DNA of 64,000 nucleotides from Rhynochetos jubatus (taxonomy: Eukaryota > Chordata > Aves > Eurypygiformes > Rhynochetidae): positions 2,408,157 to 2,472,156 of the forward strand of contig CM050676.1 of NCBI GenBank assembly GCA_027574665.1, read 5' to 3'. A program made the position numbers and the translations under genes. Shown here piece after piece: positions 12,601 through 54,389 of the stretch. The notes beneath the pieces are model-generated. The model did not search any database. It was not told the origin of the DNA and worked only from the letters and a program-made list of their open reading frames with translations. Numbering within the stretch: position 1 is the stretch's first letter; every line of letters starts with the position of its first letter.

Positions 12601-15600
12601 CGGTACCGAGGACACGCTCACAGGCAGACAGTTCTGCGTAAGGGGAGCTGACAGACTGCAGCGCTTTTCCCTCAAGCGCTTCCTGACTGCCTGCTCCAGG
12701 TCAGTTTTGCTGTGGAGCCATTTGCATTGTAAACCAAAGTGACAGATTAATACGGTGAGGCGCCTGAGAACCCCTGACAACATCAAATCTGTCAACTACA
12801 CGAGAGCTCTCAGAAGATAAGTTACAAACCAGCTCTCCTGTACCCACGTCAGCTCCTGTACAGCTCTCAGCTGTACCCACAAGTCCCAAATACAGCGGAG
12901 GTCTGTAGCCCTGCAGTCCTGACGCGCTTGCCTGCCCATCTGTTACTCAGACGGACGCAATCGAGCACTAGTAACCAGAGCGCTAAGCACGGACTACGTC
13001 CCGGATTATTCTTACTTGGTTGCTTCAGTCTTAGTTCCATGGCTGGGTCATTGGTTTTTTCTTTTCTTCCCTCACAAAGGAGTTTCTCTCTCTCTTTTTC
13101 AGTCCGATATTCTAGAAGCTGCTTCTGAGCTTGGCGATAAATCTTTAGGAGCCTTGAGCAGAGAGTCTGGTGAAGGCGGAGGAAGAAATACCAGTTGTTA
13201 TTGACAAAGAACAGACTGTAAACATCGTCCAGAGTGTTGTGGGGCTCAGCAGCTGTCACATCACAGAAGGTCGCTTTTGCCTCCGAAGGACTGCTTGGAG
13301 GCCCAGGCACGTGTTTTTTCCGTAGCTCGGGAGCATCCAGGTTCTGCCCCTGATGGTTTTCTCTGTCCTCATCTGTTGATTCTTCAGAAATGCTGTGCTC
13401 AGGGGGCTGAGAGAAGAACAGCTCAGGGATGAAGTGATGCACTATCTGCCGGATGGTTGCTTGATCCTCCTTTTGGATAGTAGGCTGCCTTTTTACATAA
13501 TAGCTGATTAGAGAGGCTGCATCTTCCAAAATCTGCTTGTCTTCATAGATAAAGATAAGATGAGGCTCGTTTGTGGACGAACTTCTCCCCTCTGAATGCT
13601 GCTCCTGATGCTGTAATCAAGAGACAAAGAGATAAAGATCCTTCCAATCCATGCACAAGAGGGACTCCTGCCAGAAGAAATTAAGCCGGTATTAACGCTG
13701 TGCTTGGGACAGTCATTTTGGGGGAGAACTCTTTGGGGCACTACCACTTCAACCCGGTCCCAAGTGCCACGTGAACACCTAGAGAATACGCTAACGAAGG
13801 ACATACGGGACGGGTTATTTACCACATACGCACCTCATCGTAGACACTCTCAATTTCGTTCAGCAAGCTCTTGGAGCGCAAAGCTTTGGTGTCGTTTTGT
13901 TTGAAGTTGACGGCCTGATGGTCCAGAGACTTCAAGTAGGCTTTCTCGTACTGCTCCCGCCAAATTTTGTTGAAGCCCTGCTGGGCCTCCCGCCATTCCT
14001 CCTCTTTCGCTTTCAACCTGCACAGACGTATAATCCGCTTCAGTTCCACATGACAAGCACAGAGCATGTTTGATGTAGCCAGCTGCGAGGCACCGAAAGC
14101 TTTTCGGTACACCCCGAAGCACTACGTAGAGCAGAAAAGCCCCAGCACTGACGAGGAGTTACCCTTTGAAACAACACCTACAGATCACAGTTGTTTCAAA
14201 ATGCTTTACCAATTCCGCACCAGCTCCTTAAAGAACCCGGGTGAGCACAGGAGAACGGGATTTACCTCTTAAGAACAACAGGAACTGCAGTAACCGGGTT
14301 TTTCTTAAGACTTTCGATGATCTCTGGTGCCTTATCGCCATAGATGCGATAGATGGCCCTGCGCTGGATCACTTCTGACGTTCCTCCCAAGCAGTCATCC
14401 AGTCGAAATTTCTCCTGATCCTCCTGAGTCAGTCGAGACAGTTTTTTCTGCACACTCTCCAGCACACGTATTGTGGCCAAATTGGTCTCCAAGACAACAT
14501 CCAACTGTTAAGAGTTGACAAGAGACAGTGTAAGAACAGGCACAGCAGGAAAATGGAGGCGAGCGGCACCAGGTTTGTAGCAATGGATTCCAGCCCCTGT
14601 GGGTGGAGCCAAGAAGCACCGGCGAGGTTTCTTACTGGAAAACGTACCTCCGCCAGTTCTCCCTAAGGTCACGGGCTTTTTGGAACTGGACTCATGCCCA
14701 GGAAGAACTATTAGACTCCGAGCAAGTGGCGAACACCAAACTCTAGCTCAAACCAACCAACACTAATAGAACTTTCGGTAATGGGCCACCAATTCATTCA
14801 GTCAAAAGCCTCAGAGCTGCAAGTTTTGCTTTCTGAGGAGGCAGACGGGCAGGAAGGAAGCTCGGTAGAGAGATACCTCAAACCGCTCATCTTCACAGCG
14901 GTGCAACTGCTCCTCATACGGAGTCTTCTTGGAGCTGACAAAAGTGGAGTCTTCGGACCAGGATGGAAATGAAACCCAGGTATCATTCAACACCTGCAAG
15001 AGTGCAAAGACACGACATGGAACAGAGCCTTAGGAGCCCAGAGCTGTTCTCATGGGGTCTGATATCTCTGTTCTATTTTTGCACAGCTCTTCCCTGAGTT
15101 TCCATTGGAAGCTTCGGACCTGGTTCACAAGTCCCTGTCACGACTCAGAAGATTAAAGGTCTGTGAGGAGCTGTGCCAGGGCCCTGCTCAGGAAGCTCCA
15201 AAGCACCTTCACGATCGTCTCACAAACCACAGGGATCACTGCCATAATCAGCAGCTGGAAGCACAGGAGGCAGAGTTGCCAAGAGCAGCCAGGGGCGGGA
15301 GCACCCACGCTGCACGTCTCTTCTCAGGGAGAACAGTGCTTCACACACTGGCTCACAGGGCTCGTCCGCGAGGAAAACTGTTTCTAAAGGCCACGGCGGT
15401 CCAGTGCTAGGGAATTCATTTCAGGCTATTTAACATTCTTTTCTGTCTAAAGGAGTAAGTTTGTGTATGCACACGGGCTCAAAAGACACTGAAGTGAAAG
15501 ATGCGATTTGAGATGGGTTTAGATAAAACTAGTAAAATGCATGTGGCTACTCGTTTCAATAAACGGGATGAATGACTGAGGTGAGACTGATGCTGGCCAA

Positions 15601-18600
15601 TCCCTGCTGAAGAGGGGAATCCACACGCAGAACCTGTAGCTCTAAGAACCCCGATTTACGTAAGTGCAATGTGTGTTCGGGGACCGAACAGGCTGATCCC
15701 AAAGTACCTCCTTGCAAATGGCTGTTCTTCCACTGCACTTTGGCTGCTGATAGGTTTTTGGGAGGGCGCGGTAACTCGATCCTATGCGTTTGCAGGAAGC
15801 GTAATCAATCTCCCGACTCATTCCATCCCCAGATCGGTCGCTCAGCGGAGAAGCAAATGAAAGCTCTTTCACACCGAGGAAGGATTTGAACTGTGCAAAG
15901 AGTTCTGGAAATTTCCTTCAGAAACACAAGTAAGTACGTTGTTATTTCACTCTGACAGTCTGAAGGTGGCTCACGCGTGTCGTAAAAGCGAGGGAGAAAA
16001 CCTAAACTTAGCACTGCAGCGAGAATCCTTCTCCAGCGTTTTACCTCTGTTACCGTTCTCTCTGAACCGTTTTAGGTTCTTTTTGACTTAAGGCAGGAAA
16101 AGAATCTCGCTTCACAACCACGAATACTCCTCTTAACTAGGCCACTGATCCTTGCCACGTGACTCTCCCTCTTCTGCTGGAAGCCAAACAGCACCAGAGG
16201 CTCCCACCAGAGAGCTAGAACTAGTTAACCTTTTCACAGCTCTGTTACGAGACTTCATGGTTATACCTGTATTGTATTTTGCGAGATCAGAACAAGGAGT
16301 GTGAACAGAGACCACGCTCCAGAATCCACAAGATTCTCTGCCCCCCAGCGATTCAGCAGTCCGCTGCCTGTGAGGCTTTCAACTGGATGCACAGAGGAAA
16401 ATATCCTCCTCAAAATGCTCTTGGAGAGCTGCGTAGAAATGTTAGAAGACCCAGATTTTATTACTCCTCTTTTTGGACTAGCCTTCAATTTCTGGAGCCC
16501 TCAACATCAGAAGGATATAGACCGGTTGGAACGAGTCCAGAGGAGGCCACGGAGATGCTCCGAGGGCTGGAGCACCTCTGCCATGGGGACAGGCTGGGGG
16601 AGTTGGGGGGTTCAGCCTGGAGAAGGGAAGGCTCCGTGGAGACCTTAGAGCCCCTTCCAGTGCCTGGGGGGGCTACAAGGAAGCTGGGGGGGCTTTTTAC
16701 AAGGGCCTGTAGTGACAGGACAAGGGGTAACGGGTTTAAATTGAAAGTGGGGAGATTGAGATGGTACATCAGGAAGGAATTCTTCCCGCAGAGGGTGGGG
16801 GGCACTGGGACAGGTTGCCCAGAGAAGCTGTGGCTGCCCCATCCCTGGCAGTGCCCAAGGCCAGGCTGGATGAGGCTGGGAGCAACCTGGGCTATGGAAG
16901 GTGTCCCTGCCCATGGCAGGGGCTGGGGGGGTTTTAAGGTCCCTTCAACCCAAACCATCCTGTGATTCTATGATTCTTGTGTGCTACCCAGGAGACATTT
17001 CTGGAGTTAAATCCAAAACTTCAGGAACAGAGTCCGTAACGTCTACCAACAGGTAACAGAGTAAGACCTGAAGAGTACAACTTAGCAGAGAAGACAATAA
17101 CTTACCCCAGAAACGGTGTAACTAGCTGGAGCAACTCAGAGCCAGAGACCAACTCCTGGTTGAAGAGAGCAATGCAACGGAGAAAATTCTCATAGACTTC
17201 CTGGCTCTTTAGCACCCGGCGCACCTAAAGCGGTTTGGAGAGGAACGATCAGACCACTTGGACACCACTGCTATTTAGTTCACATTTCTGAGTAGTCTGA
17301 ACCACGGGTACAGTGACAAACCTCCATCTACACGGCAACGTAAAAAGAGAATACACACAAAAATGCCAGTTTCAACCAATGATCTAGTAACTACAGGTGG
17401 TACCGTGAGGAAACAGCACTAAACAGAGAGAAAGCCATGTCTGTAAGAGACAAGCATTCAGGGAAAGGTTAATTAACAGTTTCTATTCCTCTTCCCAACC
17501 CACCTATTTTCTCTTTTCTTGGTCTGTCTCTTTCTACCACTTGAACAGTCAGGCAACTGTTAAGTGTGGACACACCGACTGTACAGAAAACCAACCAATT
17601 CATAACCACATACAGGTTCAAGTAAGTCCACAGAACGTGAGAGTAGGCCAAATACTGACCTTGTCAAAGAAGGAGAACTCTTGCAGTGTTCCGTACTTTC
17701 CCACTGTCGCTACTGACAGATCTTTGGTACCTCGCAGTTTCATTTTCTTCTGTTAAAAGAACAAGCAGTTGTAGGTAGAATGTTGTGGCTCAAATGCTAC
17801 CAAATTCCGCGTTGCTGACACCTAACAGCTCTCTGCAAAGCCTGAAACCCCAAATACTGATCTAGCACTGCTGTGCCAAGGCCTCCACAGCAACCTCTAC
17901 AACTGACTCCCAGTGAAGAACCAACAAAAAAAGGATCACTTGAGACAGAATTCCAAAGATTTCTTTGTAGAAGCAACCAACTGCCCCTTTCCAAGGCCAA
18001 CACTTAGTACAGAAGGTCTTGATATTTAGCATTCACCATGTTCCCACGCACACCTAAGCGTACCTTAAAAACTCCCTTTCTTCTACAGTAATTAGTACTT
18101 GTAGAGTAACCCTGAAATTTCATTATCGTACCTGACACTCACACACCTCAAAGACGCTACTCACTGCCACTTTATCGAAGCAAATAGCTAGAGCCAATGA
18201 GTAATATTAGGTTATTCCATGTCGTTACTTCCTGAAAGATACCTTTGCTGGGCCAGAAACGGGACGCAGCAACAGTGGTCTGGATCGCTTTTTGCTGTGT
18301 TCCAGACTCTTCTCATGCTCAGTTTTCTGGACACTGTTCACTTCACATGGTCCATTTCCTGTGAACTGAGGTAAATAAATCATGATTTCAATGTTCTCGC
18401 TTGGCACAAATAGAGAATCCTGTCCCTCCTACCCAACAGGTCACAGAGCATGCGGTTAAGTTACCCGTTCTGCAGCGAAGAGGAGCAAAGTTCAGCTCCT
18501 GGCTGTACGTTTTTCCGTAATGCTCTGCATTCCTAAAGCTTCCCTACGCATTCTACACACAAACAGAGAGTATTCAGTATTTTGCCTTGTTCTAAGCATG

Positions 18601-21600
18601 CACATACCAAAGACCTTTTAGCCTCCGGGAGGAACTGTCCAAACTCAGAAAGCAGATCCTCCTGTCCCCTGAACAGATTTGCTACTTCAGTAAACACTTC
18701 CTCCTCTGACATGCCCCGAAAGGGTCGGCCTTTAGTGTTCAGCTGTTCTTTCTGAAACGATACGCACAGATGTTAAAAAGAGAAAACCGCACCTCACGCG
18801 GCAAGAAAACTCGTGTCCGTAACAGCCAAAACCCCAGTGCTACACAAACTGGAAAGGACTGAGATAGCCCAGGGTCGTACAGTGCACCCATTCACACGGA
18901 ATACCGCTAACTCAACCGGAGGTCAGTAAGGGCAGATCTAGACATGGCCCCTTTACGCCTCAGACCCCGGAGAGCTGTACAGTTGTCACACTGCCGTCAT
19001 TTCGTGGCAGTATCTATGAGGCAATGCCTGGAGAGAGGCTGGCCCTCGGGAAGCCCTGAAGCCCATTCAGCAGGCGGAGGTTTAATCTGACAACAGCTAC
19101 AGTGCACACCCACACTCTCTCAGATGGAACGCTTCTCACCTGGTAAGTATGAAGAATTTCTAAAAAGGATCTGTAAATTTCTGGGTGATCCAGGAAACGT
19201 GTTTTGATCTTATTCACGTAACTGATAGCATTATTGAACTCTACAGAATCAGACTCCAAAGGAATTTGGGATTTGTCTTCTTTGTATGGAAGCTGTTGCC
19301 TAAACTCTTCGGAGCAGTCACTGTGATTGTGCGAATTCTCCTGGGAGTAATGCAACAACAGCCCGCTGCCAGGGAGCGCGTTGGGGACGGGCTCTGAGGG
19401 CACCTAGTGGCACAGGACAAGACAGTGACCCACACAGAAATGTAGGTGCAAGTTCAACAACGATCTAGCATCAGGATTTTCAAGCTGTTTAGCTAAAAAA
19501 GATTTCATTATCCCATCAATTGCTCTACCTATTTTATTAAAACCATCCGTTAAAAGAATCCCGTAAGTCTGACTCATTACCGCTTTGGACTGTCACTGCG
19601 TTATCCACTGCGCTTCGAGAGGGTCTACCAAACATGCCCTGCAGTTTCTTCCCACTGACTCGTTTCAGAGGAACTGTCCGTTTTAAGAAATGTATTAAAA
19701 CATAAGGCTCCTAAAGATGCTAAATTTCTAAGCACCAGAGAGACCTAAAGGAACAGACATCTAGAAGATATTTACTGCTCCTGATTAAACCACAAGCTCA
19801 TCAGGTAACAGCTCTGTTTCAGCCTCCACAACCACCCAACAACAAGAAAAAGGAGCAGAGGCCAACAGGCATCCATCTGTGTTACAGCAGGTATCTTTCA
19901 CTGCAGGATGTTAGCGATTGCATGGCGACACCTCACACGCGTTCTTTGCCTGTTGCCTACACGCACGTCCCAGTTTCTCAGTGGAAGACTGGAAACGCGA
20001 TCCTGCCAGGATGTCTTTTTGTGATTTGTCACTGAACGCCACGCACTGAGAACCGATATAACACGTCAAGCCGATGACAATTTCAGTTTTCCAACCTGGA
20101 GCTGAAGTGACCCTTCATGCAGGGATTTCATTCTTGTGTAAGCTAAACTAACCACTAGTTTGAGAATAAATATTTAAATTTCTGTTATACCCATTACCGC
20201 AGACTTTGGAAACCACGTAAGAACCTTCGCGACATGCAATACGCGTAGCCTACCGCGCAGGAGACGCGTGCAGCGATACGTGGAACAGAACCAATTGAGG
20301 GAGTACGAGCTCTACAACCTACCTGACTGTTCAAAGGTGACTGTATACTTAACTTCCCGTTCTTTGGAATTTCTATCCTGTAGCCCAGAGGGAGGAAAGC
20401 ATTGAATCCTACAATGAGGTCGGGATGCTCATGGAAAAGCTGTGAAACACGTCGGATTACTCCAGGTGTGTCAATGCTAAAAACGGAGACGAGTTTGTTA
20501 CTTGTGTCGGAAAGAGAAGCACGAGTTAAGCCGAGCGCGTCACAGGGTGCCCCAAGCCTGGGCCTGGCTTCTTAGAGGTGCAGTTCTGCAACAAGCAAGT
20601 TTGGGAACCTCAGACCTAGAAATCAGCCCAAGCAGAGGGAACGACCGCCATCCACTGCGGCCTCGCTCCGGGGGTGTCACCCACAGAGGAGCTGAGACCG
20701 TGCAGGCTACCCGAAACGGGCAAGACAGCCACCACCTCTAGGGCTGCCCGGTGACAGAGCGGCTCCACACTCAAGCTTCTGTGCCCCTTTTCAAGATCTG
20801 CGTTTCAGAGCGGGAAGCGAAAACAGACCTGCCTTTTCCTGTGGATCTGGGCCCTGGAAAACAATGGGATGGACAGAGACCCTCCGTCTCCAAGGTCTAG
20901 TGACTGCACTAGCGGGGGACAGGCCAGCAGGGTGGCCTGTGTGTCTGTGGAGCTGGAAAAATGGTGTGGAGGCTGGGGGACCCCCATGAAGGCAGAGAGA
21001 CCCCCGCAGCAGCCCTGGGCTTTACCTCTGGCTCTTGAACTCTTTCATGATCTCCAGGAAGCCGTTGTAGGTGGCAGGGTCGCTGCCAAAGCGGATCTTC
21101 ACCTGGTCCAGGTAGGACAGCGCATCCTCCACCTGCGGGGCGAGAAGGGGGGTCAGGCCCCGAGGGGGGGAACAACCCCTGAGGCATCCCACGATCCCGG
21201 ATTGGGGGCAGGGGCACCCCACGGCACTCAGGGAGATGGCAGCAGGCCCCGGGGGGAGCCCCACAGCACCGGAGGAAGGGAATAGCCCGGGAGGGGCACA
21301 CGGTGCCAGACGGGGGGGCCCTGAGGAAGGAGGGTGGGCCTCGCGGTGCTGGAGGAGGGCACGGCAGGGGGCACGGTACCGGGGAGAGGGAACAGGCCCC
21401 AGCGGAGGGTGACCGAGGTACCGGAGAAGAACAGCCGGGCTGGTGGGTGGGGCACGGTATAGAAAAGGGGGGAACAGGCCCGGGGGGGGCCTCACGGTAC
21501 CGGGGGAGGAGGGCGCAGGCCCCAGCGGACCCCACGGTACCGGGGGAGGAGGGCGAGGGTACCCCACGGCACCGGGGGAAAAGACCCTGGGACACACCAC

Positions 21601-22554: not shown

Positions 22555-25500
22555 ACCCTAATTCGGGACCAGGAAGGCAAAAGGATGGCAACAAAAACCT
22601 GCAGGCTCAGTCCTGGACGTTTATGCTGCTTTGCCCTGTCCTTGGCTCTTCACGCCACTGAACACATTTGGGAGAGCTTGCTGGAACGAATCGAGCTCCG
22701 GGAAGAACTTCCTTGGTTGCGCTGTCCCGTGCTTGAGTTTTCCCCATCTTTCTTTCTGGGTTTTACCGTACGCGTTGCCGCGATGTTCTGGACTGGGTCG
22801 TACCGAGGAGGGATGGTCTTAGGACAGTGAAACTTCTCACGGGTTGTATAACCTCCTTTTGTGGTCGCAACGAATCCGTCCGCAGTGGGTACAATTCTGG
22901 TAGCGGCTGTGTAGACACACCGTACAGCCAGCAAGGCACCTGCGGAAACCAAGCTCAGAATAACGCGTTTACTGGGCAGCGGGACTGCACTTAAAACATG
23001 CCACTTCCCTCAAATGGTCCCTCGTCACCAGTCAGTAAACTGGGTCTTGTGAAAAGCCAGGAGGAGAGGGGAAAAAACAAGCCATGCTGCTTGTTTCTGC
23101 TTAGAACGTTATAGAGGATTTGCGTAGTAGAAATGACAGAAACCTGTTGTGGTGGGGTTTTGCCCGTGAACTCGCTGCTGATGCCTGGACCCAGCCTATT
23201 TTTCTCTACTATGCGCTGGAATGCTCCAACCGTGGGGTTGCGATTGCAGCTGCCAGTCACAGCGCTAACGCGCTGCCTGTGGATTCGGTATTCTGGCCTC
23301 TGTTCTGATAGTTGCACAAACTGTTGCTGCGTGGCGTGTTTCCCCCCTTACAACACGAGGGATGCTACAAGCCTATTTAACGCAGGAAAGAGTACAGGCT
23401 TCCTCGTAGTTGCTGGCATTTCCCAATTACTCACCGCTTGCAACATCCCAGTCTCTAATGGACTGATCCGGTGACCCAGTGTACCGGTACTTATCATCTT
23501 TCGAGAAGCAAGCACAGCAGATGCCTTTCAGGAGAAATGCAGGCTGAAAATGGATGGTTAGGGTTAGACTGTTAAATACAGGGTGAGGTGAAGATGCCTT
23601 GGAGTATTCAGTGGTTATTCAGTGCTTGCGAACAGAGGTAATCGGTTACGATTTTTACAGCAGTGATCCTGGAAGGAGGGTGGGAGGTATCACAAAGCCC
23701 CTAGCTTGTGAAGCACTGTAGAGCCGTGCAGGAAAGGGAGCCTAGTGTTCCTCCTATGGAAAGGAGTAGCTCAGTTGTGTCCATGGTGTGTCGCCAGGTG
23801 AAAGAGTGTAACAGCATTGATCCAACCTCCTCCATCACTAATTTTTTCTTCCTACTGGATTCTCCTGAGCTGGCCCAATTCAACCCTTGTGTTGCTATTG
23901 TTAACTTGGGAAGCCTCGTTCTCTTCACTGGTGTGTGCCATCTAGCTTACACGGGCTAAATGAGCAGTAATAAGCTGTGGGTAAATAACTCCTGTGACGT
24001 ATGTTTAGCGTCAGAGTGGTGTTAACAGCGCTCATTCACTTAGCACTGACACCTCGGTAGGGTATCTAGATGTAAGGCTGCTTTAAAATCAGACCTAGAT
24101 GCTGAATATAGCTTGCTGCCTCAGTCTGAACAGCTCTGTACAGGATTTGGGTGTCCTGGGAAGAGCTGGGAATCCTGTCGGATCCTCCCTGGCCACTCAG
24201 GGCAGTAATCGCCTATTGACACTGTCCTACTACCGTAGGACCTTATAATAGCACATCTCGTGTTCCTGCTGACAGAACTCCAAGTCCCAGAGACGCTGCA
24301 GGGAATCTTCACACCCACTGAGTGCCCACTGCTCTCCGTGGCTGCTTTCCAAACAGCAGATCCGGCTTCTGTGACCTTCCAAAGGAAACACTTGGGCCCG
24401 AGGGCAGTCATAAAGGAATAAGTCCCCAGCAGTCATGCCACAGAGGACTCTGTAGTCTGCAAGGACGGCCACTCTGGAAATCAGAGAGCCAGGGATCGGG
24501 GTTTCAAAGGTGTAGGTGGGCCTGTTGATCACTGGGCATGGATCTGCAGGGATAATATCCAGCACAAGGACTAAATCATCGTATGCTATGGCAAGCTGCT
24601 CTTCCTGCTTGTTGATTGCTATGTCGTTGGCTGGTTTCTGTGACTCCAGAGGTGGGATGCATGCTGCGTCCTGCCTGGAGTTCAGTGGGAGGACAAGCAC
24701 TGTCCCAGATACAAGCCCTGTGAAAAGGAGCTGCTTTTGCTCCGCTATTTCCAGGCATCGCACTTGGGCAGAGGTGTCCAGTGTGTCACACACTTCACCT
24801 GTAAACCAGAAGGAAATCAGCAAGACTGGTTCACTCCAGCTGCCCCCGCGTGCCTTCCCTCAGCTGGGGCTCATGATCGGCTTCATTTTTGTGAAATAAC
24901 TTGCATATTATTCATATTTCCAGTTTCCCCGTGTCATAATAATAAGCTATTCTAGACGAATGTGCTGGAGAGATTAAAACGCTCTCTGAAACAAACGTTC
25001 CTAGATCTCACGCTTAGGAAAAGCAGAAAGGAGCAGCCTGTCCTCGTCGCACGTGCAGAAAGCTAACTGCTGCCTCTCGGAGTTGGTTTGTTCCCCTCCT
25101 AGCCCACATGCAGGCTGAATTTAACGCGGGGTTTCCGAGGTGCAGTTTACCTCCTGTGGCGTTCCAGATGACAACTTTATCTCTGTTTCCAGGTTGGGTA
25201 AAGTAGACGTAGTTCCCGCCGTGGGACAGGGCAGCGCAGCCTGTGTTTGAGACGGGTGCCAAGGTTTTCTGCCCACGTTTGTGGGTGAGGTTCCACACGC
25301 CTAGATGGGGTGAGCTGTGAGAGGCAGAAACCAAAGTGCGGTCACAGAGGGCTAAGAGTGTTACTGGTGCTCCCACGCCATCCAGTGTGTCGGTCAGCAA
25401 CCCCTGGTCTGACAAACTCCACACCTAGGACAAGTTGCGGGGGGGAGATGTCATCAGTGCCTGAGGTACTTTTTCCTTAGTCCTGGTGAAGAGGTGAAAC

Positions 25501-25694
25501 AATATACCTTAACTAACTTATCCAGAAACATAGGAAGGCCAAAGGATAACATCCTAATACTAGAAGGCAAAACATTGCTTTTTTACTGCAAACAAATGCT
25601 TGAAGTACCTGGAGCCATTCAGCCCTCTTGCTTCCTTTCCTCTGAAAGACCTCTAATTAGATCCTGCCCATTCTGGACTGTACTGGCTGTTTAC

Positions 25695-25876
25695 CTCTTT
25701 CTTTGGCAAGAGATGGTGCTCCAGATGTGTATTCCATCTGGCTCCTGCTCACAGATGGATAACAAGGCAGTTTTAGGGGTTTGGATTAAAAAAATCTGGA
25801 CATTAAATTGTATTCCAGGCCCCAGGCAGACAGTGGCTTGGGGCTGGCCTTCTGAATTGATGAAGTGCTCTCCATC
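25695..25876 (-). other. Exon-like open segment inside an NWD1 intron
   Basis: This 182-nt minus-strand segment is flanked by a good acceptor (TTTTTGACACAG) and an acceptable donor (AAAGAG then GTAAAC). It encodes a WD-repeat-looking peptide containing TALLSICEQEPDGIHIWS. It lies between two NWD1 exons (26095-26249 and 25151-25424) that join directly in phase 0 in the human protein as I recall it. At 3n+2 nt, its inclusion would break the frame. It could be a relic or lineage-specific WD exon, or chance. Confidence 0.35.
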
Positions 25877-28800
25877 CTGTGTCAAAAATAGAAGAACAGG
25901 AAGGCTTAAAGCAATGAAGAGAAGGGTCAATGGTTGTCGTTTTCAGAAGTGTGGCAGTAGTAGGACTGCAAATCCGACCCCCAGACAGGTTGCTGGGGTT
26001 CAAGATGACATCCTTATTGGACTGGGGTCGTATTCTGTAAGCTGGATTGTAAGAGATGCTTTGGACTGGGAAGCTGCCCAGCCTTCCTTCCTACCTCAAT
26101 AGATGCAGCCTGAGAACCAGTAACAATGGTGCTGTTGCCAGCAGAGACAACAGCTGTGTGAACCACTCCTTGATGTTCCAAATCTGCTGCTAGGAACCTG
26201 TGGAATCCCTTGGAGTCTGCCAGGTACACTCGCACATACTCCTCAAAGCCTAAAATAATAAAATTTTAGTTGCTGATTTATTGAGCCGGGCAAGTCTCTA
26301 ATCCCCTTCACAGCATGTCCTCACGCATACAATTTAATTCCTGTATTTCTTTAACAGTAAGCCCCAGGAGTAGCTTAGAAACCATAAAAAATAATCATGC
26401 TAGCTTGAGTCATTTTCACTACTTACATCTCATTTATTCCCTTGAGAAAGGGCTCCTGGTACCCAGGCAATGCTGTGCCTTTCACGGAGGGCATTTCACC
26501 CAATCTTTGTTGCCCCTTAAGTACAGCCCTTGAATAAGGCCAGGGTAACGGGGAATTCCGCATGCTAGCCCCTTTTAAAGGACACTTGGCGTGTGGGAGA
26601 GCAGCTGTTACCAACACTTTCCTAAGGAATGGGTGCTATTGAACCTGCAGCAAGAAGGGATTCATCTTCGGATGCCACCACAAAGCAAACCCTTCCAGGA
26701 AGCTTCTCTAGCAGCCTGTTTCCATCCGGAGAGATCTGCACTAAAATAAGGCCAGAGTAAGACATGAAGCTGGGGTGGCTGAGCTGCCTCTCACCTGAAG
26801 GCAAGAGGATGGATTAGCAATGAAATTTAGCTTGGCCACATGGTAGTGGGCAGAGCTGTGAGGTGCAGCAGGATAGAAAGTGTGTTTGTTGTCCATTTGG
26901 GAGCTAGGACATGGAAGTCTGAGGAGGATGCTCTGTTCAGCATGGAGGAGGAAGGCCAGCTGGTTACTAGATCTGTTGTCTGGCTCAGTAAACCCCTGGA
27001 TATTATAAGAAATTACAAGAAGTATTATAAGAAGGTTGAACAGAGGTGCGTACCATGGCTAGAGATCCCCTGCTAAATCCCACTATCATCTTCCCTTGCT
27101 TCTGGATCAGAATGCTGGAAGTTGGTGTTTCTTCCTGTAGCCCGCGTAGCTGACATTTGGATCTCAGCTCGCCGGTGTTGCTGTTCCACAGACTCAGCGT
27201 TCCTCCTTCAGACACAGTCATAATCACCAGCCTTGGGCTGAGTACCACAGAACACGTCCACGCATCTGACGCCTCTCCAGAGATCTGGAAGACGAGTTCT
27301 GCTGTCTCCAGGCACCAAGCACTGACCTAGGAAAGAGGTGGCAAAGAGATAGGTGTAGCGAGGACTGAGGTAGCTTTTCTGTCAACAACCTTCCTGGTTG
27401 TGGCTGTAACTTCTGAAGTTCTTGTTCCTTCAGCACGCTTCAAGTTAAAGAGTGGCCATACCTTTGTATCTGAGGAAGAATATACAATCATGTGCCCCTC
27501 ACCCACATGAAGGTGATGTGAGGGCTCTTCTTCGATGTCCGTGTCCTGGATAATAAACCTTGCTCTGCCAGAAATCAAATTCCAAATGCACAGACTGTGA
27601 TCCATGGAAGCTGAAACAGCACAGGTTCCTTTTCCAAACACTTTCACGCACCTCACCTCAGCTATGAAATGAGACAAGGATTCACAGGATGAAGGATTGT
27701 CAGTGCCTTCAGCAGTCGGGAGAATGCTGGCAGCCAGGAGGTGTCTGTGTGCCTGCGGCTCAAGGATGGCCAAGCTGCCAGAGCTCTTTTCAGGTATTAA
27801 AACAAGCTCTCCAGCCATGAGAAGTGGAGAAGGCTCACCAGAGTGCCCAGGGAGGGCATGCAGCATCTCAAAATCTTCCATACTCCAGACAAGCATTGAG
27901 CCATCCTGGGAACCTGCCACCAGCAGCCGGTAATCAGAACTCGGTGCCATCACTGTGACCCCTGCCGTGATACACAAAGAGGAGAGGCGGTTCTTGATAC
28001 CGCAGGCAGAAAAGAGACGTTTTAAGATTATTAATATGCTGTGTTTCCCCGACTGGAAACCCCCCCTGTGCTGTCTGAACCCCATAGTCTGTGCCAAGAG
28101 CAAGATTAGGTTCCCTCAGACATATCTAGGTCAGTGTGTGCTTTTGTTGTCCTGACGACAGTGACCCACTTTGTCCTGGTGTCGAAGCGATTGTGACTGG
28201 CACTGGTGCACGACTGAGCACAAAGGCAAAGGGACTTTTATCCCGCCGTGGTGGAAGCTCGCAGGCAAAACCGTATTTCTACAGAAATAGCTGTTCTCTC
28301 CTCCTTGCTCTGTTCATTTATGATGTTTCTTGGATCTCACTCATAACAGATGGATGATTAGATATGTTCTCGGGCTGTATCTGTCCCCGGGACTATCCCT
28401 CCCCCTGAGGAATCCGGTGAGTGTTGTGTGTAGGGTCCCACCGGCTGCCTGGAGAAATCTGCGCAGTGGAATGAGAATGGGATAGGGACAGACACCACAC
28501 CAGCTTCGACACTGCTGGCACAGCTTCCCGATGACCTCTGGGTAAGAAGGCACGGAACGAAGAAGCCTGGCCAACACTTCTGTGTATATTATACTGGCTC
28601 CTAAGGGGGCAGAGACAAAAAAGCGTTCCAGAACACGACTGGCGGGCCTGTGAGCGCTACCACACTTGTATTTTCTGTGATATACAGTATATAATGAACT
28701 CAGCAGGCTGTATCTGGCCAGGCACTTGAATAGCGTAGGGAAGGCGAGGGTGTAAAACATGGGCAAATGTAATGGTGTGGCAGGGTTTTTCCCTTGAGGG

Positions 28801-30003
28801 GGAGGAGTTGGAATTCTGAGAAGAGTAAGGAGCAGCACTTTGTGGCCTCTCATCTCATTAGCTTTAAAGCTGTGAGGGAATCCAGGTCACTAAGAGGTGC
28901 TTCCACTGGACATGGGGTGACAGGCGCTTTGGTTGTGGTAAATGGCTCTGATTCACTAGACGAAATGTCTGTTGGCAAAGAGGAAACCTCAGCTTCCCAC
29001 GGAATGGGGCGTTTATGAGTCTTTTGATGATCCCAGAGCAGAGAATTTCTGTCACTGGGTGTAATTCCTCAGAAAAGTACTTTTACTTGGAAGGGAAAAT
29101 TCCAGTTCTTCCCTCCGGTAAACGCTCGGGTCGCGCTCTGACACGGCTGTTACCTTCAGGGCTGCCTACGCTGCTGACTGCCGGCTTCAGGAGAAGCGTG
29201 TCCTGCACGAGGCGCAGCTCCGGACAGCTGATGCGTTCGGCACACGTGGCAAAGTCGTCAACAACGCTCTCTATTCCAGAGGCAATTATTTTACAGCTGA
29301 TCCAGTTCATATTCCCTGCAGAACGAAACGCTGTTAGAGCAGAGGACATCAGCCCTGAGAATGCACGGTTACGCTGACATGACTGAAATTAAAAAATGCT
29401 TTTTTGGGGGAGGAAAAGGAGAGAAGGATCAACAGCCACCAGCAGTGGAACTGGGACTCATTGCTGAGGAAGTGGAGGGCTGCCATTGCCACGATTCCTT
29501 CTTTAGCCTCTTAAATGCTCTATGTATTTTTTTTATTCAGTTTTTATGTTTCATTCTCATCTTTGGGAGGATCTAGATGATTCCTTTTAGCTACTAAAGC
29601 AGTGTGGTGATAATTCTAGGATAACAGTTCATAGAAGTTTGCTTATTTCTCTTTTTCAAGTTTTCTTCTCACAGCGGTTACTGTGCAGGAAGGGGGTGAT
29701 TCTTACCAGTAGCTGTAGGCATGAAGCCCCTGCAGAGCACTGTACACCCCCTCTCGCCCAGTCCTTACCCAGCACATCCTGCTTCAGCTCCTCAATTCGC
29801 CCAGCATTAAGTAAATGAAATGGCAATTCACTCAACTTGCTCAGGTTTGCAACAGAGTCAGAGAACCAGGGTGGCTACCTAGGAGTAACCAGAACAGTGG
29901 ATTTGAGACACGGCTTGGGGATTAATCTGCTTTCACCACTGCAGCACCAGGTGCTATCTTGTGGTATGCCAGACAGCACTTCCAGGATTTTCATTGTTTT
30001 CCT

Positions 30004-30651
30004 TGTCGTGGTTTAATCCCAGCCACCAACAAAGCACCACACGGCCACTCACTCACCTCCCCCTTCCTGCAGCGGAGGAGGAGAATCGGAGCAAAAGGCA
30101 AGAAAACTCATGGGCTGAGATAAAAACAACTTAATAATTGAATATGACTAAAATAATGATACTAATAATACTAAAAATACTAACAATACTAGTAATCACG
30201 TGTAATGAAAATAACACAAAGTATAACAAATGATACAGTCGCTCACCACCTGCTGACTGATACCCAGCCAGGTCCTGAGCAGCAAGAGCCCGAGAGAGAT
30301 CGCAGCAGGGTCAGAGTGAGTCCCAGGAGCGAGAGCACGAATGAGAGAAGCAACTAACCAATGACATGGCCCCCCCCCGCCAGCCCACCCCCAACTGAGC
30401 ATGACGTTTGATGGCATGAAATGGCCCTTTGGTCAGTTTGGGTCAGCTGTCAAGGCTGTTTCTCCTCGCAGCTCTTGTGGAGAAGAAGTTGGGAACACAG
30501 GGACAGCATCAGAAACTGGAAAAGTCCTTGAATTGGTACCAACACTCCTCAGCAACAACTAAACCCACCAGTGGTATCAACACTCGGCGCAAATCCAAAA
30601 CACAGCCTCATACTGTGAAGAAAATGAATTGTCCCAACTAAACCCAGCACA
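30004..30651 (-). mobile_element. Solo LTR of an avian endogenous retrovirus
   Basis: A 648-bp element ends in TG...CA and is flanked by TCCT on both sides (30000-30003 and 30652-30655), which is a possible 4-bp target duplication. The sequence matches a familiar bird LTR pattern: GTGGTTTAATCCCAGCC, an A-rich centre with AACTCATGGGCTGAGATAA, then GGTCAGTTTGGGTCAGCTG. In minus orientation it begins TGTGCTGGGTTTAGTTGGG. No internal retroviral genes flank it, so it is a solo LTR left by recombination. It lies in the intron between NWD1 exons 31000-31159 and 29769-29878. The family name and orientation are from memory of related elements. Confidence 0.75.
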
Positions 30652-33600
30652 TCCTGTTAGTAGGAAATGGTTTTCATGACTCTAAATTTCTCTTGCTACA
30701 GTCTAAGGCAATCTAATCTGTATTTTGCATACATGAATAATAAATTCCTTCCTTGTTGCCTTTTACATATATAAAGACTATCTGACCATGTTTGTAAAAT
30801 GACAGTGTAGATCTCCTTGGTTGGAGTCACCTGTTTAAAAAACCCCTACCTATATAGTTCTGACATTGCTGAAAGCACCGAATGGTGTCACTGACTATTA
30901 CCTCTGTTGCCTTCTGATTTCAGAGCCTGTCAGCAGTCTGGAGGCACAGCACCCAGTCCAGAGCTTACAGGTATGGAAATGCCTGCTGATATTCCTCACC
31001 TTCCTGTCGGCATTCAAAGTCCTGCCAAAGTGTGGCAATGTAAAAGGTTTCTTCATTCCCCAGCTCCAAGTCCCCTTGAAGAAATCTGCCAGGAGAAAAT
31101 GCCTCTTGATTTGGTCTTGTTTTGATAGATAACGATTCCGCGCTATTTCAACAAATTGCCTGGGAAGGGAAAAAGTAATAGATGTGCTGGATCAGGGAGC
31201 TAGAGCCGGGCTTGTTCCAGAGTCACAGCTCTGACAGGGTTTGAGAATGGACAGGAGTGTCGGCAGGGTGCCCGAAAACCCAGGGTGGGAACATCCCATA
31301 CTCGGGGGTTTGGCTTCTCCTTCTCCACCCTCTGAGAGTACCTGTGTGCAAAGCGAAGAAGGGTGAAGCCGTCTGCCTCCTGTTCCGCCAGGCACTCTCC
31401 CATGTCGCTGCGTAGCCGTGCCCAGTGGAGAGGAGGAAGGCACAGGATGGCTTTACTTGAAGGAAAGTGGTGAATCTCTGAGAGAACTTCATCATCAAGG
31501 GATAAAATGTCCTTCAGCTCCATGTCTGACAGCCCATTTCTGCAAGTGAAGTGTGATATATGAACAGAAATTATTTACTGTGCTTGTTCCTGCTTACACC
31601 GGTGTCCATAGTGGGAGCGTGAGTGGTTTCTCTGGCAGTTAAAAGTACCGACACCAAAACTCTCGCTAGCTCACATGCGTGCGTGGCAGTCTCAGCTGGG
31701 AGCTTAGACCCTGGATAAGCCCTGGAGATGGATTTCCTTTCTCAAGTAATCCCAGAACAAGACAATATTTTAGGGAGGCTGCCAGGGATGAGAGGGATGT
31801 TATGCTAGCTGAATCTATGTATGAACACATTCACAGGCTCAGAGAACTGAGAGCTTGATGGGTTTTGGCTGTGTTTAGACAGATTCCCTGTGAAGAGCAG
31901 GATACAAGGGCTGTTCCACCAGAAATGCAGCCGTACTCACCGTGAGGAAGCAGTATAGCCAAGCACATGAGCCACGAGGAGCGTGCCGTGTGACTTCTCC
32001 AGTCTCTCGCACAGACGACGCATGGCGTCCTGGCTGTGCTAGCAATCACTAGTTCGGAAGGAGAAGTGTAAGATGCCCGTTTTCTGGCCTCACAGGCGGC
32101 CAGCTTGAAGAGCAGGGCTTGCCCGCCCCAGGGGAAGCTCTGGCGGAAATAGGCCCATTGAGCTGGGCTGCGCCGTCGTCTCTCTGACGCTAAGAGCATC
32201 TCTAGCATCTCCTCACCTTCCTCACAGGATAAGGGTTCTACTTCAAAGTACGCTTCAGGGTCAGGCACAACGTGTTGGAGAGCTTTCAGAGTATCAGGCT
32301 CTGCTGTGGAAGTGGAAATGATGATGTGGACCTTTGGAGGGCAGTCTTTAGGGAGCCAGTGGAACCTGTGAGCACCATTACCAGGAAGTAATCTCACCAC
32401 AGAGTCAAGGAACAGCACCAGGATCTGTGTGCCACAACGGGAGACGGTGAGGAGGAGTTTACTGAGGAGCAAGTCTAAATCGCTGCCAGCCTGTTTGGCC
32501 TGGGTTGGAGGTTGTGGCAAATCAAATGCTAAACACACTTGGAGGCAGATGTCCCTCAGCAGGCTGTGAATGGCAGAACTGAGCTGGGATGTCCCCAGCA
32601 ACCGAATCACGACTACGGTGTCTTGCCCTAAAGCAGCTTGCACCCGCTCAGATAGTTTGCACATCACAGCTGTTTTCTCACAGCCTAGTGGCCCATAAAG
32701 GATGAGGGCATTGTGGGTTTTCTCATTGTTCTGCCTAATACGGTGAAAAATGTAATCCAATAAATCCTGTCTCCCCCAGAAAAATCTGCAGTGCTTCAGG
32801 CGCAGCGCTGCGTGGTGGCCCAGCTCCTGCAGAAGTTGCCCTGGCTCCTCGCTGACCTGTCCTCGGTGTCGAAGGGTCTCTAAAACCTGCTGATTGGTGA
32901 CAGCAGCGAACTGCTCACAGAGTTCTTTCAGGTATTTGTTACTCTCCTTGCGCTGAGGGTTCCCGGAGTCTTTCCTGTACGCCCGTGTGTGTACTTTGAG
33001 GTGTTTGGGGTAACGGCTTGCGATTTTCGCTTTAAGGTTGCTGAGCAGCTGGTTTGCTTCACTGTTTGGATTGTCCTCTTTTTCTAACAGCTCGCTGCTT
33101 GTCCCTTGCCCAGTCTGTCTGCTGGAATCCTCCACCTCCCTGAGGAATAGGAAAGCCCCTGGATTGCTCTGCTGGGTGTTGAGGAGACCTTGTTCAATCT
33201 CCCAATCAATGGCTAAACAAAACAAAACCAGAGGGGGAGATGTGAGCGTTTGGGCGCAGAACAGAACACAGGAAAAGCCTTCCACCAACATTAACGTGAG
33301 ATCCCTTGGTCCTTCTGTACTTCAGAGGATGCTGGCAGGGCAGCATTCCCCACGTCCTCTGAGCTAGGTAAGGTCCTGGATGTGCACAGAGAGATAAGGG
33401 AAAAAGGAGAAACATTTCTATCTGGTGTATCAGTTATTGTTTGCTAGTCAGCACCACCCTCCTTTCTTGGGATTTGGGATAGATCAGGTAGTTAGCAAGC
33501 CTCTTCCTTCCCTACATCTTTCCTGTTGTTGTCTGGAACCAAACAGCTGTGCTCACTGACAGAAGGACATTGCAGCCCTGCCAGAACACACCTGATCGGT

Positions 33601-36600
33601 GGTAGCAGTGGCTCCGCTCTGGGCTGAGCAGCCCGCACCTCTCTGCCTTCTGGGCCGCCGTGCGCAGCGCTGAGGCCAGGCGTCTCTCCAGGCAGTGCCG
33701 GGCCTGCCCGTCAGCCGGCTGCAGCACGTAGCAGGTGGGCAGCGCGTTCTCATCCCACCGGTACCGCTGTGTCAGGAGCTGGGCAGAGTCCCCTGCTAGC
33801 TGCAGAGTTAGGGCCGCAGATTCCTCCTCCGTGATGAGCCGAGGCACAGTCTGGTGCCCGTAGTCATCCCCCAGCAGCCCCTGCAACAGGCAAAAAAGGT
33901 CTGGCATCCAGGCACTGCTGCTGCCGTGACAGCTGGAGCGGGGCCTGGCTGCTTGCCCTAGCACCTAGGATTGCCGGGAGGGCTGCCCAGAGAACATGCT
34001 GGTAACCACAGCACCCTTGCGGCTTCCATGCTGGACGGGGGCAGCCGAGCAGAGCCCCAGTCTGCCCCATGGTCAGGGAGAAGGGGCTTTAGAGCAGCGG
34101 CTCCCCAGGCCTTCACAGTGTGATCTGGGCGGGCAGAGAGCGACGGTGAGGCAGCGGACGCACGGAGCAGAACTGGTATGGGGACATTGGCCAGCGGTGC
34201 TGTAAGACTGGCTCTGGGGTGGAGGAGAACTATGGGAACAGCACTGAGCCTGGGGACTTCTGATTAGGACCGAAGGCTGGGCTGGGGAAAAGCGAGATCC
34301 TGAAAAGTGTCAGAGTATCCGTGCAGCCCGGCGACAGCTGGGATAAGCTCAGAGCACAAGCCCACAGTGTAATCCTCGAGCAGTGCCCTTCTGGGGTGCG
34401 TAAAGGAAAGGGGGAGTAGTCAGACCCTCGCGGCTGCCTCTGCTGAGATTCCTCGGTACGCACCGAGAACCAGTCTGAGGGAGACGCTGCCCGAGTGCCT
34501 GCCAGTGCCATCTGCGTGTGCGACGTGGTGCTGCTCACGGGGGGGTGAGCTGCAGGGCGCTCAGCCTCGGGGAGCTCCTGGGTGCAGTAATGCCGTGGTG
34601 AGGCTCTCCTGGTCTCTGCCCTTCCGTTGCTGGCCTGTGGTGGAAGTGGTTCAGGGGAAATCAGGCACAACTTGCACAAATACTTAATGGGTTATTTCTT
34701 TACTTGTAGCTTCAATTATGCCTCCTGGGACTGTGTATGTATTCTCTCTTCAGCAAAACTTTCTCCCTTCCTAAAGCCAAAACAACCTGAGGAAGCAAGC
34801 TGGCGCTTCTGCCTCAGCACTGCAAGGCTCGAAGTTCTGGCTGTGGGTTTCTGTTTGGGGCTGTCACCAAAGCGCTTCCAGGAAGCTGAGGTGGGCTGCT
34901 GCCGTGGGGAGCTTTCGGTGGTTGAAGCAGTGGTCAGAGGGATGTGAGTAGGGCGGGGGCATGGAACAGGTATCAGCTTGCGGTGTGATGCCTGGCTCTG
35001 TCCCTGGTGGTTGCTGTGGCATTTTCTGGTTCTTTGCATGGGGAGTTTGTGTTTATTCCCGAGAAAACTTCCTCAATATTGAGGTATCGGGCAGGAAGCA
35101 AGCTTGGAGCAAGAGCATCCTGCCTTATGTGTATCCCCATCTGCTCGTTAATACACACAGCCCCGTTACCTTCTGCTCTGAGGAGACTGGTCAGGGCTGG
35201 ACTAATGGCGCGTGCCTGTTGGGGGTACTATTGTCTTTTAGGGAGTATTGGCAGTTACTGACATCTCAGCCCCATCGGCGAGCTGATCTGTGAAGCTGCT
35301 CAGGCAGGCTCATTCCTTTTGAAAAGCACCTTCCTTGCCCAGTAGACCCGAGTGCGCCTGGCCTGCCCCGTACGTCCCCCTTCAGTCTGCGCCGCTCTTA
35401 CAATGAAGGTGGGACCCGCTGACGGTTTCTGACAGGCTTCAGTTTCCTCCAGAGAGAGCTGTGCGTTTCTGTGATCAGGGTCTGCAAGCTCAGAAATACC
35501 CCATTTCAAGTCGATTACCTGCACAAAAAATATGTATATATATAAAGATTCTTAGACCAGTCAATACTGTCATCAAAACAGCGACATGGGAAAATGAAGC
35601 CATTCTAACATGTTTCGGTTTTAGAGCGGTCTGAATGCTAGTGGTAAGCAACTTGAATTACTGGAACTCTGCAAGAGAGGCTGAGATACTCAAAATCCCT
35701 CAGGAGGGATTTCTCCTGTGAAAGACTCAGGGATTCGGACCCTGGATGGGCAATTAGGCAACTGAGGACAAGGAGCCTCGAGACTGGGTTACCTGCTGCA
35801 ACATTTCGAGCCTGTCTTTTATCAGAGAAGCTGAGGATCCCAAACGTTTCAACAGCCCCTTTTATGCTAGAAGTTCTGTGCAAATCGGTATAATTAGGTA
35901 GTTCAACTACCCCTGAAGTATCTCCAGTGGAATTTATACATGGAACTTATTTTCCAATCGAATATAGTAACAAAAGGACTATGGACACCCTTGTGTCCAG
36001 GTGCTTGAGTAGGGCTAGCCACCTTCACCGGAACCCATCCGGCTCAAGCATACAGATATACGTAATACAAGAGTTCTAGGGGTTAGGTACAGCAGTATTT
36101 GACTCCTAGGAGGCTCCTAAGGAAATGGAAAAAACATTTTTGGGTTTTTTCCCCTCCAGCCCACATAGTTGGATGGCCTTTGGGCAGGACAGACAGGAGA
36201 GAAGTGATTTACCTCCAACATTAGGCCGTGCTTCTGACAGAAGGCCTGCGCTTCTGGGTAGGCTTTCTCCAGGAGGGTCTCTTTGTAGCCACGTCTGCAT
36301 GGAAGGATTTGTGTGGCACACCAGAAGTTAGGGCTTTGGAGCTGGGTTTTGACTTCGTGTCATGTTAGACCTTACAGCACCAATGCCGTTTGTGTTGCTA
36401 TCGTCTGATCTGGGTTGTTTCACACCCATGACGTTGTGGTTCAGCCCGGTGAACCTGTGGTTTCCAGACCTGTGCCCACAGGACTGCGTTACCGACGTGA
36501 GTGCGTTTTCAAGGCGCTACCCTGGCTTGTCACGCCGTGGGTTTCATTTGCTAACACGCAAACTCTGGGTTGCGTAGGTACAGAATACGGTACAGCAGCG

Positions 36601-38506
36601 CTGATCCAGAAAAATACGTTTGTTACGTCTTACTGCGGCAAATCCTCCATCCTATTTTAAGACCACTCAGGCACCCCGTTGGCCATCTCAGCAGTGATAA
36701 ATAGCCACAATAAAAGGCAATTCTACCCACAGGGAATCTTTTCATACAGCCTCCAGCCTGTGAAATGTTTATGGCCGCTTCCCCTGCTGTGCTTTTCACA
36801 AGAGAGATTACCACTTTCTAGAAAAATCCTTGTGCCACCTTTTAAGTGACATACTCACGGAATTGAGTCAAGCAGCAAAGTAGGTGAATTCAACATAAAC
36901 CGAGACAAAGCCAATAGGAGGAAAAGTAAGCACAGCTATGCACGCAGATGTGAGCGCGAAAGCTCGCTCCCGGCGCCCACATGCGTGCACCCTCTCCTGC
37001 CCGCTGATAGGTCTTATGTTCGTGGGTACTTTCCTCACCTGCAAAATGAAAAGACAAGTGGAATATAAAGGACATTATTCTCCTTACTTATGTTTCATCA
37101 TACGAGATCATAATTTCTTCAGAACTGGAATGTTCTCTCCCCAAAATGGTTTAAACGTTCACAGCACTACGTAATCATGTGATAGAGCAGTACAAGAGGG
37201 AATGCTAAAATTAGGCTGGGGAATGGCTGTATCTGCAGCTTGCCTTGGGCCTGTTCTAAGTGAAAAGTGATCCCTAATGAAGTCTGTGCCAGTGTCAGAT
37301 GAGGAAAGGGCTCCCTTGGGTTAGGAATTACCAGGTCTGCACTGCTGTCCGACGGGGAGCAAGCACTCCCGGTCTCATACCCCTGGAATAATGCATTAGC
37401 TCTCAGCAAGGTTGCAGGAGCTACGGGAAATCCTTCTATCGCCTTACACTCCAGCCCACGTGAATTCCAAACTCCACTGAGAGAGTGGGTTTAACTTATA
37501 AGCCTGTCTCGTGGTGAAAATCCAATCACGCCACATCCTTCCTCCCAAAACTGTTCCTGAAAATGCACGAGGCCTACCACAAGTTGGACAGGTGGTGTAG
37601 GTAAAACCCTAACACAGTGTCCTTACATGCCGCTAGTTTCAGGCAGTCTGCAGTTCTCGGACAGTGCAGGATCCGCTTCTGTAAACGCGGATGTACCTGC
37701 TTAGGAGAAACGCCTCGCCGACCGCGCACATTCATCGTGTTATCTCCCGCTGGAGGAGATGCTGCCGTATTTCCTTTCTTTGGAAGGCACTTTTTGTGGA
37801 ATTGAGAGCCTATCGAAGCCTAATTCTTAATTAAAAATGGAGACAGAGTGAATGATTTTCAGAAGCGGAATCTGAGCTTTGTAATTCCTGAAAATCTGAG
37901 TCATTGCTACCCACTGCCGGTTACCACTTTAGGAGCTCAGTCTGGCAACCGTGTCCCAGTAGGCAGAGGAAGTGGGAAATATTTGGAAATTGTCCAAGAA
38001 GAGAAGTTCTTCACAAATACTTCTTGCCGTTAGGGCGGTGGATGGGAACCAAATGTGTGCTGCCCAGCGTTTCCAGAAAGCCTGCGAGCGTTGCTGCTGC
38101 GTGCAGACAGGCGTTGCGCTGCGCTGCTGTCGCACAGTAGTGCCCAGGCTGAGCGTGGCCCCGCTGCAGATGCCAGTTCCTGAACTGCTGCGCAATCCTG
38201 CCACCTCGGACACGTTCTAGGTGCAATGTGAGCGTGACAGAATACAGCTGTATGTAAAGTGCAGTGGATCATAGGCGTCTTCCCTGTCAGATGGAGCTGC
38301 AAGCTTACAGCAGCCTCAGTGCGTGGTAATGCTTTGCAGACGCTAGCAGAGAGTGCCTGATGCATGCAGCAGCTGCAGGGCTTTTCAGCTTATTTACCTG
38401 AAAACACCGAGCTGATGAAGGCTCGGACCAGGCTGGAAGGCTGGAAAGGAAGAGGAACCATCTTCCCACACAGAAGATCCCGGTGTGTGTCTGGACGGAA
38501 GCTCAT

Positions 38507-54381: not shown

Positions 54382-54389
54382 GCCCCGGC

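What the first reader, a model, noticed from the sequence alone, without database searches (positions are those of the whole stretch)
22650..38506. NWD1 looks like a unitary pseudogene between intact neighbours
All recognisable NWD1 exons lie in order with mostly perfect splice sites. Codon-phase arithmetic nevertheless shows several independent breaks and motif losses, while SIN3B and TMEM38A on either side are flawless. Loss of a NACHT/WD gene in a bird lineage, with a nearly complete fossil at the syntenic site, would be notable and datable.
Basis: partly seen in the sequence, partly recalled or inferred. Interest (0 to 1): 0.78.

Follow-up and report, generated by a model that had tools for sequence, protein, structure and literature searches.

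The report
Dead NWD1 gene in kagu-like bird
In this bird, a relative of the sunbittern and most likely the kagu, the only copy of the signalling gene NWD1 is broken in several independent places while its neighbours look intact, so the gene has probably been lost within the last few million years.

Summary
Nineteen NWD1 exons lie in order on the minus strand, start codon 38506 to stop 22650. Against bird and reptile NWD1, three length changes break the frame (about -4 bp in exon 2, -1 bp in exon 5, -8 bp at the start of exon 8), the exon 10 donor reads GG, and Walker A is GPLGCEKT where 25 of 25 others keep PGCGKT. The spliced reading stops after 60 aa. TMEM38A (5 of 5 junctions), the anchored parts of SIN3B (13 of 13) and the F2RL3 main exon keep frame. 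The genome has one NWD1 locus. A control of 142 kb of open protocadherin frames makes assembly error unlikely. The window groups with the sunbittern (support 100), so it is most likely the kagu. Changes private to the window fall on otherwise invariant residues twice as often as in other birds (18 of 56 against 146 of 988, P 0.002). The sunbittern shows the same (15 of 45); their shared stem does not (7 of 43). No nonsense codon stands in 1586 codons, so frame loss is recent, roughly 3-9 My. A real unitary pseudogene: new case, known kind.

The parts
38398..38506 (-). NWD1 exon 1 (start codon, first strand of the DUF4062/TIR-like domain)
   Evidence: aligns with Anser, Eurypyga, Theristicus
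36213..36294 (-). NWD1 exon 2, frame-breaking
   Evidence: 4 bases shorter than the reading of the 11 other sequences that cover the stretch
36277..36284 (-). lesion 1: about -4 bp, frameshift; first stop of the spliced reading follows at about 36223 after 60 aa
35402..35518 (-). NWD1 exon 3
33592..33880 (-). NWD1 exon 4
31941..33212 (-). NWD1 exon 5 (NACHT domain, start of winged-helix domain)
32671..32694 (-). Walker A, reads GPLGCEKT; the glycine before the lysine is replaced by glutamate
   Evidence: 25 of 25 other sequences covering the motif keep PGCGKT
32029..32036 (-). lesion 2: -1 bp, frameshift inside exon 5
   Evidence: 27 of 27 others read through; the HTH_NWD1 match starts at profile position 24 just downstream, in another frame
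31342..31539 (-). NWD1 exon 6 (in-frame loss of 2 residues)
31000..31159 (-). NWD1 exon 7
29769..29878 (-). NWD1 exon 8; frame-keeping start at 29874 only with the second of two AGs
29866..29878 (-). lesion 3: about -8 bp at the exon 8 start, where 23 of 27 others read VAPQPLWFS
29154..29315 (-). NWD1 exon 9 (in-frame loss of 1 residue)
28403..28600 (-). NWD1 exon 10
28401..28402 (-). lesion 4: exon 10 donor reads GG
   Evidence: no frame-keeping donor found nearby at the script's threshold
27839..27961 (-). NWD1 exon 11 (WD repeats begin)
27462..27661 (-). NWD1 exon 12
27054..27326 (-). NWD1 exon 13, donor GTACGC
   Evidence: the script kept frame here only with another donor
26645..26735 (-). 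NWD1 exon 14, weak donor GTTCAA (ancestral state unknown)
26095..26249 (-). NWD1 exon 15
25151..25424 (-). NWD1 exon 16
24242..24798 (-). NWD1 exon 17, weak donor GTCCTA, probably ancestral
23435..23543 (-). NWD1 exon 18; last WD blade reads KYRYTGSPDQSIRDWDV
22650..22939 (-). NWD1 exon 19 and stop codon
45558..50317 (-). TMEM38A, neighbour that keeps frame (6 exons)
9697..21130 (-). SIN3B, neighbour that keeps frame between 14 anchored blocks (ends approximate; not all of the protein anchored)
1396..2502 (-). F2RL3/PAR4 main exon, open frame of 368 aa

Best explanation
This is the single NWD1 locus of a bird sister to the sunbittern (most likely the kagu), inactivated in place. Shown: exons in order, two frame breaks that splicing cannot bypass (exons 2 and 5), a third at the exon 8 start, a lost exon 10 donor, loss of the Walker A glycine, neighbours that keep frame, and no other copy. 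Inferred: constraint relaxed after the split from the sunbittern; the canonical transcript would end after 60 aa and be removed by nonsense-mediated decay; any rescue product would lack the winged helix and WD propellers and have a dead ATP site; the frame was lost roughly 3-9 My ago.
For: Gene model and lesions. First stop after 60 aa. 18 of 56 window-private changes at otherwise invariant sites against 146 of 988 in 18 other birds (Fisher P 0.0019), not distinguishable from the neutral 0.425 (P 0.14). One locus. Neighbours. Assembly control: 51 of 55 protocadherin-type matches lie in open frames of 700 aa or more (50 of them sum to 141.6 kb); P of 3 or more breaks in 4.77 kb is 0.0004, or 0.002 with a cautious rate. 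3 of 5 window-specific length changes break frame, about what is expected without selection.
Against: No nonsense codon in 1586 codons; about 5-8 would be expected if the whole terminal branch (about 129 aa changes) were neutral, so a good part of that branch evolved under selection for a full-length frame. The branch is not significantly faster than the sunbittern's (58 against 47 private changes, chi-square 1.15). Hoopoe, pitta, tinamou and megapode proteins depart from consensus as much or nearly so, though their DNA was not seen. A small population could also raise changes at invariant sites. Two of the four lesions might be bypassed by splicing. No reads or RNA were seen.
Confidence: 0.86

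Rival explanations
1. Assembly errors: the gene is intact and the length changes are sequencing artefacts.
For: No reads were available; the lesions are short, and the exon 2 one lies in a two-base repeat.
Against: 51 of 55 protocadherin-type matches sit in long open frames in the same assembly and the neighbours keep frame. The donor change and the excess of changes at invariant residues are substitutions that indel errors do not explain.
Confidence: 0.08
2. A shortened functional product: an alternative start in or after exon 2 gives a DUF4062-NACHT protein ending shortly after the exon 5 shift.
For: The frame is open from exon 2, including a Met in GLMLEV, up to the exon 5 lesion, about 530 residues.
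Against: It would lack the first TIR-like strand, the winged helix and all WD repeats, and its Walker A glycine is lost.
Confidence: 0.04
3. Polymorphic or very recent loss: broken alleles at intermediate frequency, with intact alleles in the species.
For: No nonsense codons; the assembly shows one haplotype only.
Against: Four separate lesions on one haplotype and near-neutral private changes suggest more than one recent event.
Confidence: 0.1

Closest known systems
[quoted passage not shown]
   Same: Same order of segments and domains; 86.5% identical to sunbittern (1326 residues, its mispredicted stretches included) and 83.7% to red-throated loon (1535 residues)
   Different: Frame broken at three places, one donor lost, Walker A and last WD blade altered
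NWD1 entries of Morphnus guianensis, Anas acuta and Ciconia maguari
   Same: Other birds whose entries carry the LOW QUALITY label, with missing exons or apparent frame changes
   Different: Their lesions were not examined in DNA; none is a close relative of the window
Unitary pseudogenes in general (in-place loss of a single-copy gene; recalled, e.g. primate GULO)
   Same: Decay at the syntenic site, no spare copy
   Different: Younger; almost the whole reading frame still stands

Membership tests
NWD1 orthologue | Position between TMEM38A and SIN3B | tested here: met
   that the order is the same in mammals is recalled
NWD1 orthologue | NACHT, NWD1-type winged helix and WD repeats | tested here: met
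   HTH_NWD1 3.2e-18, WD40 7e-22; NACHT only 2.9e-4, 21.1 bits, below its 26.7 cut-off
NWD1 orthologue | N-terminal DUF4062 (TIR-like) domain | tested here: inconclusive
   No DUF4062 hit to the split pieces; part matches the TEP1 chain 11gz_A at 2.8e-4
NWD1 orthologue | Best matches are NWD1 of other birds | tested here: met
   tree
Functional STAND NTPase | Walker A GxxxxGK[ST] | tested here: not met
   GPLGCEKT at 32694-32671
Unitary pseudogene | Disabling lesions not removable by splicing | tested here: met
   exons 2 and 5
Unitary pseudogene | No functional copy elsewhere in the genome | tested here: met
   (1.33 Gb, 148 contigs; only the best candidates were scored)
Unitary pseudogene | Intact orthologue in the sister lineage | tested here: inconclusive
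   Sunbittern model P0018 is intact at all four lesion sites but skips parts of exons 5 and 13-16
Unitary pseudogene | Relaxed constraint (dN/dS near 1) | tested here: inconclusive
   Protein-level proxy positive; no relative's DNA for dN/dS
Unitary pseudogene | Lesions fixed and confirmed in reads; no functional transcript | not testable with these tools
   no reads or RNA held

The most novel reading that the evidence does not exclude
NWD1 has lost constraint independently in both living families of Eurypygiformes after they split. The sunbittern copy is also decaying, its database model having stepped over damaged parts of exons 5 and 13-16. These are two of many separate losses of NWD1 across birds, including all oscines.
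Probability: 0.4. Interest if true: 0.55.

Novelty: new member of a known kind. Interest (0 to 1): 0.42.

Why it matters
NWD1 is described as one of the oldest animal NLR-type genes, found from sponges to bilaterians (PMC4852459, passages), and is tied in mouse to purine-synthesis assemblies in neural progenitors (PMC7186558, passages). A bird that lives without it is a natural knockout. If losses recur across birds, comparing lineages with and without the gene would test what NWD1 is needed for, and the near-complete fossil here suggests the order of events: missense relaxation first, frame loss late.

Tried and rejected
Rejected: that the window branch is accelerated relative to the sunbittern (chi-square 1.15). 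Rejected: that fast protein change alone proves decay (hoopoe, pitta and tinamou proteins depart from consensus as much or nearly so). Rejected: the weak exon 17 donor as a lesion. Rejected: my first guess that the window is an eagle relative, from two stretches shared with Morphnus; sunbittern is closer. F2RL3 did not identify the species. The Rfam scan was empty. Literature: searches of NWD1 with pseudogene, birds, chicken and gene loss, and of 'NACHT and WD repeat' with avian, gave listings with no title on NWD1 loss in birds (listings only, 15 of 16 papers were shown). A listing for kagu, genome and sunbittern led to PMC11111414.

Full report
What was checked. The finding names 22650-38506. 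On the minus strand I found 19 exons in order, from an ATG at 38506 to a stop codon ending at 22650, 4765 exonic bases in all. Boundaries were chosen by hand: 18 of 18 acceptors are AG and 17 of 18 donors GT; the exon 10 donor reads GG. Pfam sees the NWD1-type winged helix (3.2e-18) and WD repeats (7e-22) clearly, and NACHT weakly and below its cut-off. A protein search with the pieces joined by X returned NWD1 of many birds (251 hits, 120 listed).

The lesions. They were read against a 28-row protein alignment. Exon 2 is 4 bases short where all 11 other sequences that cover the stretch read ERE.LL. Exon 5 is 1 base short where all 27 others read through. The start of exon 8 is 8 bases short where 23 of 27 others read VAPQPLWFS; the other four are crocodile and sunbittern with one substitution each, an ostrich model with a different start and a razorbill model lacking the exon. 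The three shifts sum to -13, so they do not restore the frame. The spliced reading ends after 60 aa, at about 36223 in exon 2. The exon 8 break could be avoided by a second AG four bases on, and the exon 10 donor loss by skipping exon 10 (198 bases, in frame). The exon 2 and exon 5 breaks cannot be avoided that way. Exons 6 and 9 each lost codons in frame (2 and 1), so of five window-specific length changes three break frame. The lengths rest on protein comparison, since no other bird's DNA was available.

Motif losses. Walker A reads GPLGCEKT. The 25 other sequences that cover it all keep PGCGKT. The last WD blade reads KYRYTGSPDQSIRDWDV, with four changes seen in none of the 24 others that cover it.

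Which bird. In a maximum-likelihood protein tree (1248 columns, 21 taxa, 7 of the 28 rows left out) the window and the sunbittern Eurypyga form a clade with support 100, a stem of 0.062, and tips of 0.082 and 0.066. They are 86.5% identical over 1326 residues, so the window is not the sunbittern. The order has two families, Eurypygidae and Rhynochetidae, each with one living species (recalled). The kagu is therefore the likeliest source. Tropicbirds, placed with them in Phaethontimorphae (PMC11111414, passages), are not excluded, but the long shared stem argues against them.

Unitary and syntenic. The genome (1.33 Gb, 148 contigs) holds one NWD1 locus. Among the 21 matches to loon NWD1, 18 lie at the window's own locus, one is a long open frame on another contig at 28% identity (inferred to be the paralogue NWD2), and two are weak. 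Exon 5 DNA finds only itself. A script asked whether plausible splice sites keep the frame between anchored blocks: 5 of 5 junctions in TMEM38A and 13 of 13 in SIN3B do. SIN3B was not anchored throughout: residues before 41, 245-350 and 954-984 of the solved chain are outside my blocks, and the sites the script chose need not be the true ones. F2RL3 is open over 368 aa. For NWD1 the script reported 8 failures among 21 steps. Four are junctions that I count as real or possible defects (1-2, 7-8, 10-11, 14-15), one is 17-18 (weak donor, probably ancestral), one lies inside exon 5, and two are anchors far apart in one exon. At 13-14 it kept frame only with a donor other than mine.

Assembly error. 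In the same genome 51 of 55 protocadherin-type matches sit in open frames of 700 aa or more, 50 of them summing to 141.6 kb (one longer frame left out); four are short. Counting all four short ones as errors gives 0.13 breaks expected in NWD1 and P 0.0004 for three or more; a cautious rate gives 0.002. The control covers one gene family, mostly on one contig.

Tempo. At 1021 conserved columns the window has 58 private changes, the sunbittern 47, and at 44 both depart (chi-square 1.15). The window is thus not clearly faster than its sister. Whether changes hit residues invariant in all other taxa is more telling: window 18 of 56, sunbittern 15 of 45, stem 7 of 43, 18 other birds pooled 146 of 988; the neutral expectation is 0.425. 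Both tips differ from the pool (P 0.0019 and 0.0024) and the stem does not (P 0.83). Before these counts I masked three mispredicted stretches of the sunbittern model, and columns where the window or sunbittern is gapped were left out. One search, with other outgroup sets, gave 22 of 58 and 16 of 47. A small population, or errors in the sunbittern draft, could push the same way.

Against an old loss stands the absence of any nonsense codon in 1586 codons. About 129 aa changes on the tip would bring 5-8 stops if all were neutral (P 0.0004-0.006), so at most about half of the tip can be post-loss. Taken with the invariant-site estimate (neutral share 0.63, range 0.2-1.1), a share of 0.2-0.46 fits both, which is 25-59 aa changes, or 3-9 My at a recalled rate of 2-2.5 substitutions per site per thousand million years. 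This is a rough figure.

The sunbittern. Its model (P0018) is intact at all four lesion sites, so those postdate the split. But it omits the first half of exon 5, the stretch from the end of exon 13 to the middle of exon 15, and the first half of exon 16, where it takes in sequence that matches an intron of the window. Such steps are what a gene predictor does to avoid stops or shifts, but an assembly gap on its 28 kb contig would look the same. With its relaxed tip, this makes a second, independent decay plausible, not shown.

Birds at large. together list 25 bird NWD1 records. Three are labelled LOW QUALITY (Morphnus, Anas acuta, Ciconia maguari), and none is an oscine (order membership recalled). 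The neighbouring PAR4 gene, in the same database, lists many oscines as well as galliforms, a woodpecker, a hummingbird and a pigeon. The lists are cut at 120 rows and hold 90% clusters, so this is a lead: NWD1 looks patchy in birds.

Function. In mouse, NWD1 is proposed to drive purinosome assembly in neural progenitors (PMC7186558, passages). Purified human NWD1 showed no NADase activity, unlike TEP1, which shares its DUF4062-NACHT layout (PMC13174449, passages). Here neither a nucleotide switch nor the WD sensor half could be made.

Verdict. A real unitary pseudogene, recent, in a sunbittern relative; ordinary as a kind, new as a case in the literature searched (listings), and a pointer to recurrent loss of NWD1 in birds.

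Noticed in passing
P0018 (Eurypyga helias NWD1 model), aligned to window 33212-25151: The sunbittern model skips parts of exons 5, 13-15 and 16 and takes in sequence that is intronic in the window, suggesting that its NWD1 may also be damaged, or that its draft assembly has gaps.
   Followed up: partly
protein database lists: No oscine and, apart from Alectura, no galliform NWD1 is among the rows listed although PAR4 of many such birds is; NWD1 may be repeatedly lost in birds.
   Followed up: partly
P0276 (Ciconia maguari) and P0253 (Anas acuta): NWD1 entries labelled LOW QUALITY, 481 and 679 aa, with missing exons and, in the stork, an apparent frame change; probably further decayed copies.
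   Followed up: no
24242-24236: The exon 17 donor is GTCCTA; ibis, curlew and stork models read through the same site, so an unusually weak donor seems ancient in birds.
   Followed up: partly
54172-54387: GC-rich minisatellite, 21-bp unit, 10.3 copies, 93% matches, in a stretch of 78% GC beside what looks like the first exon of MED26 (MTAAP..QQIRDRLLQAIDPQSN, plus strand near 55170; name recalled).
   Followed up: no
30154-30196: Short TAATAATAC repeat in the intron between NWD1 exons 7 and 8.
   Followed up: no
G000:C3:35753854-35754294: A NACHT match with two stops inside its frame, possibly another broken NLR-type gene in this genome or an exon boundary.
   Followed up: no
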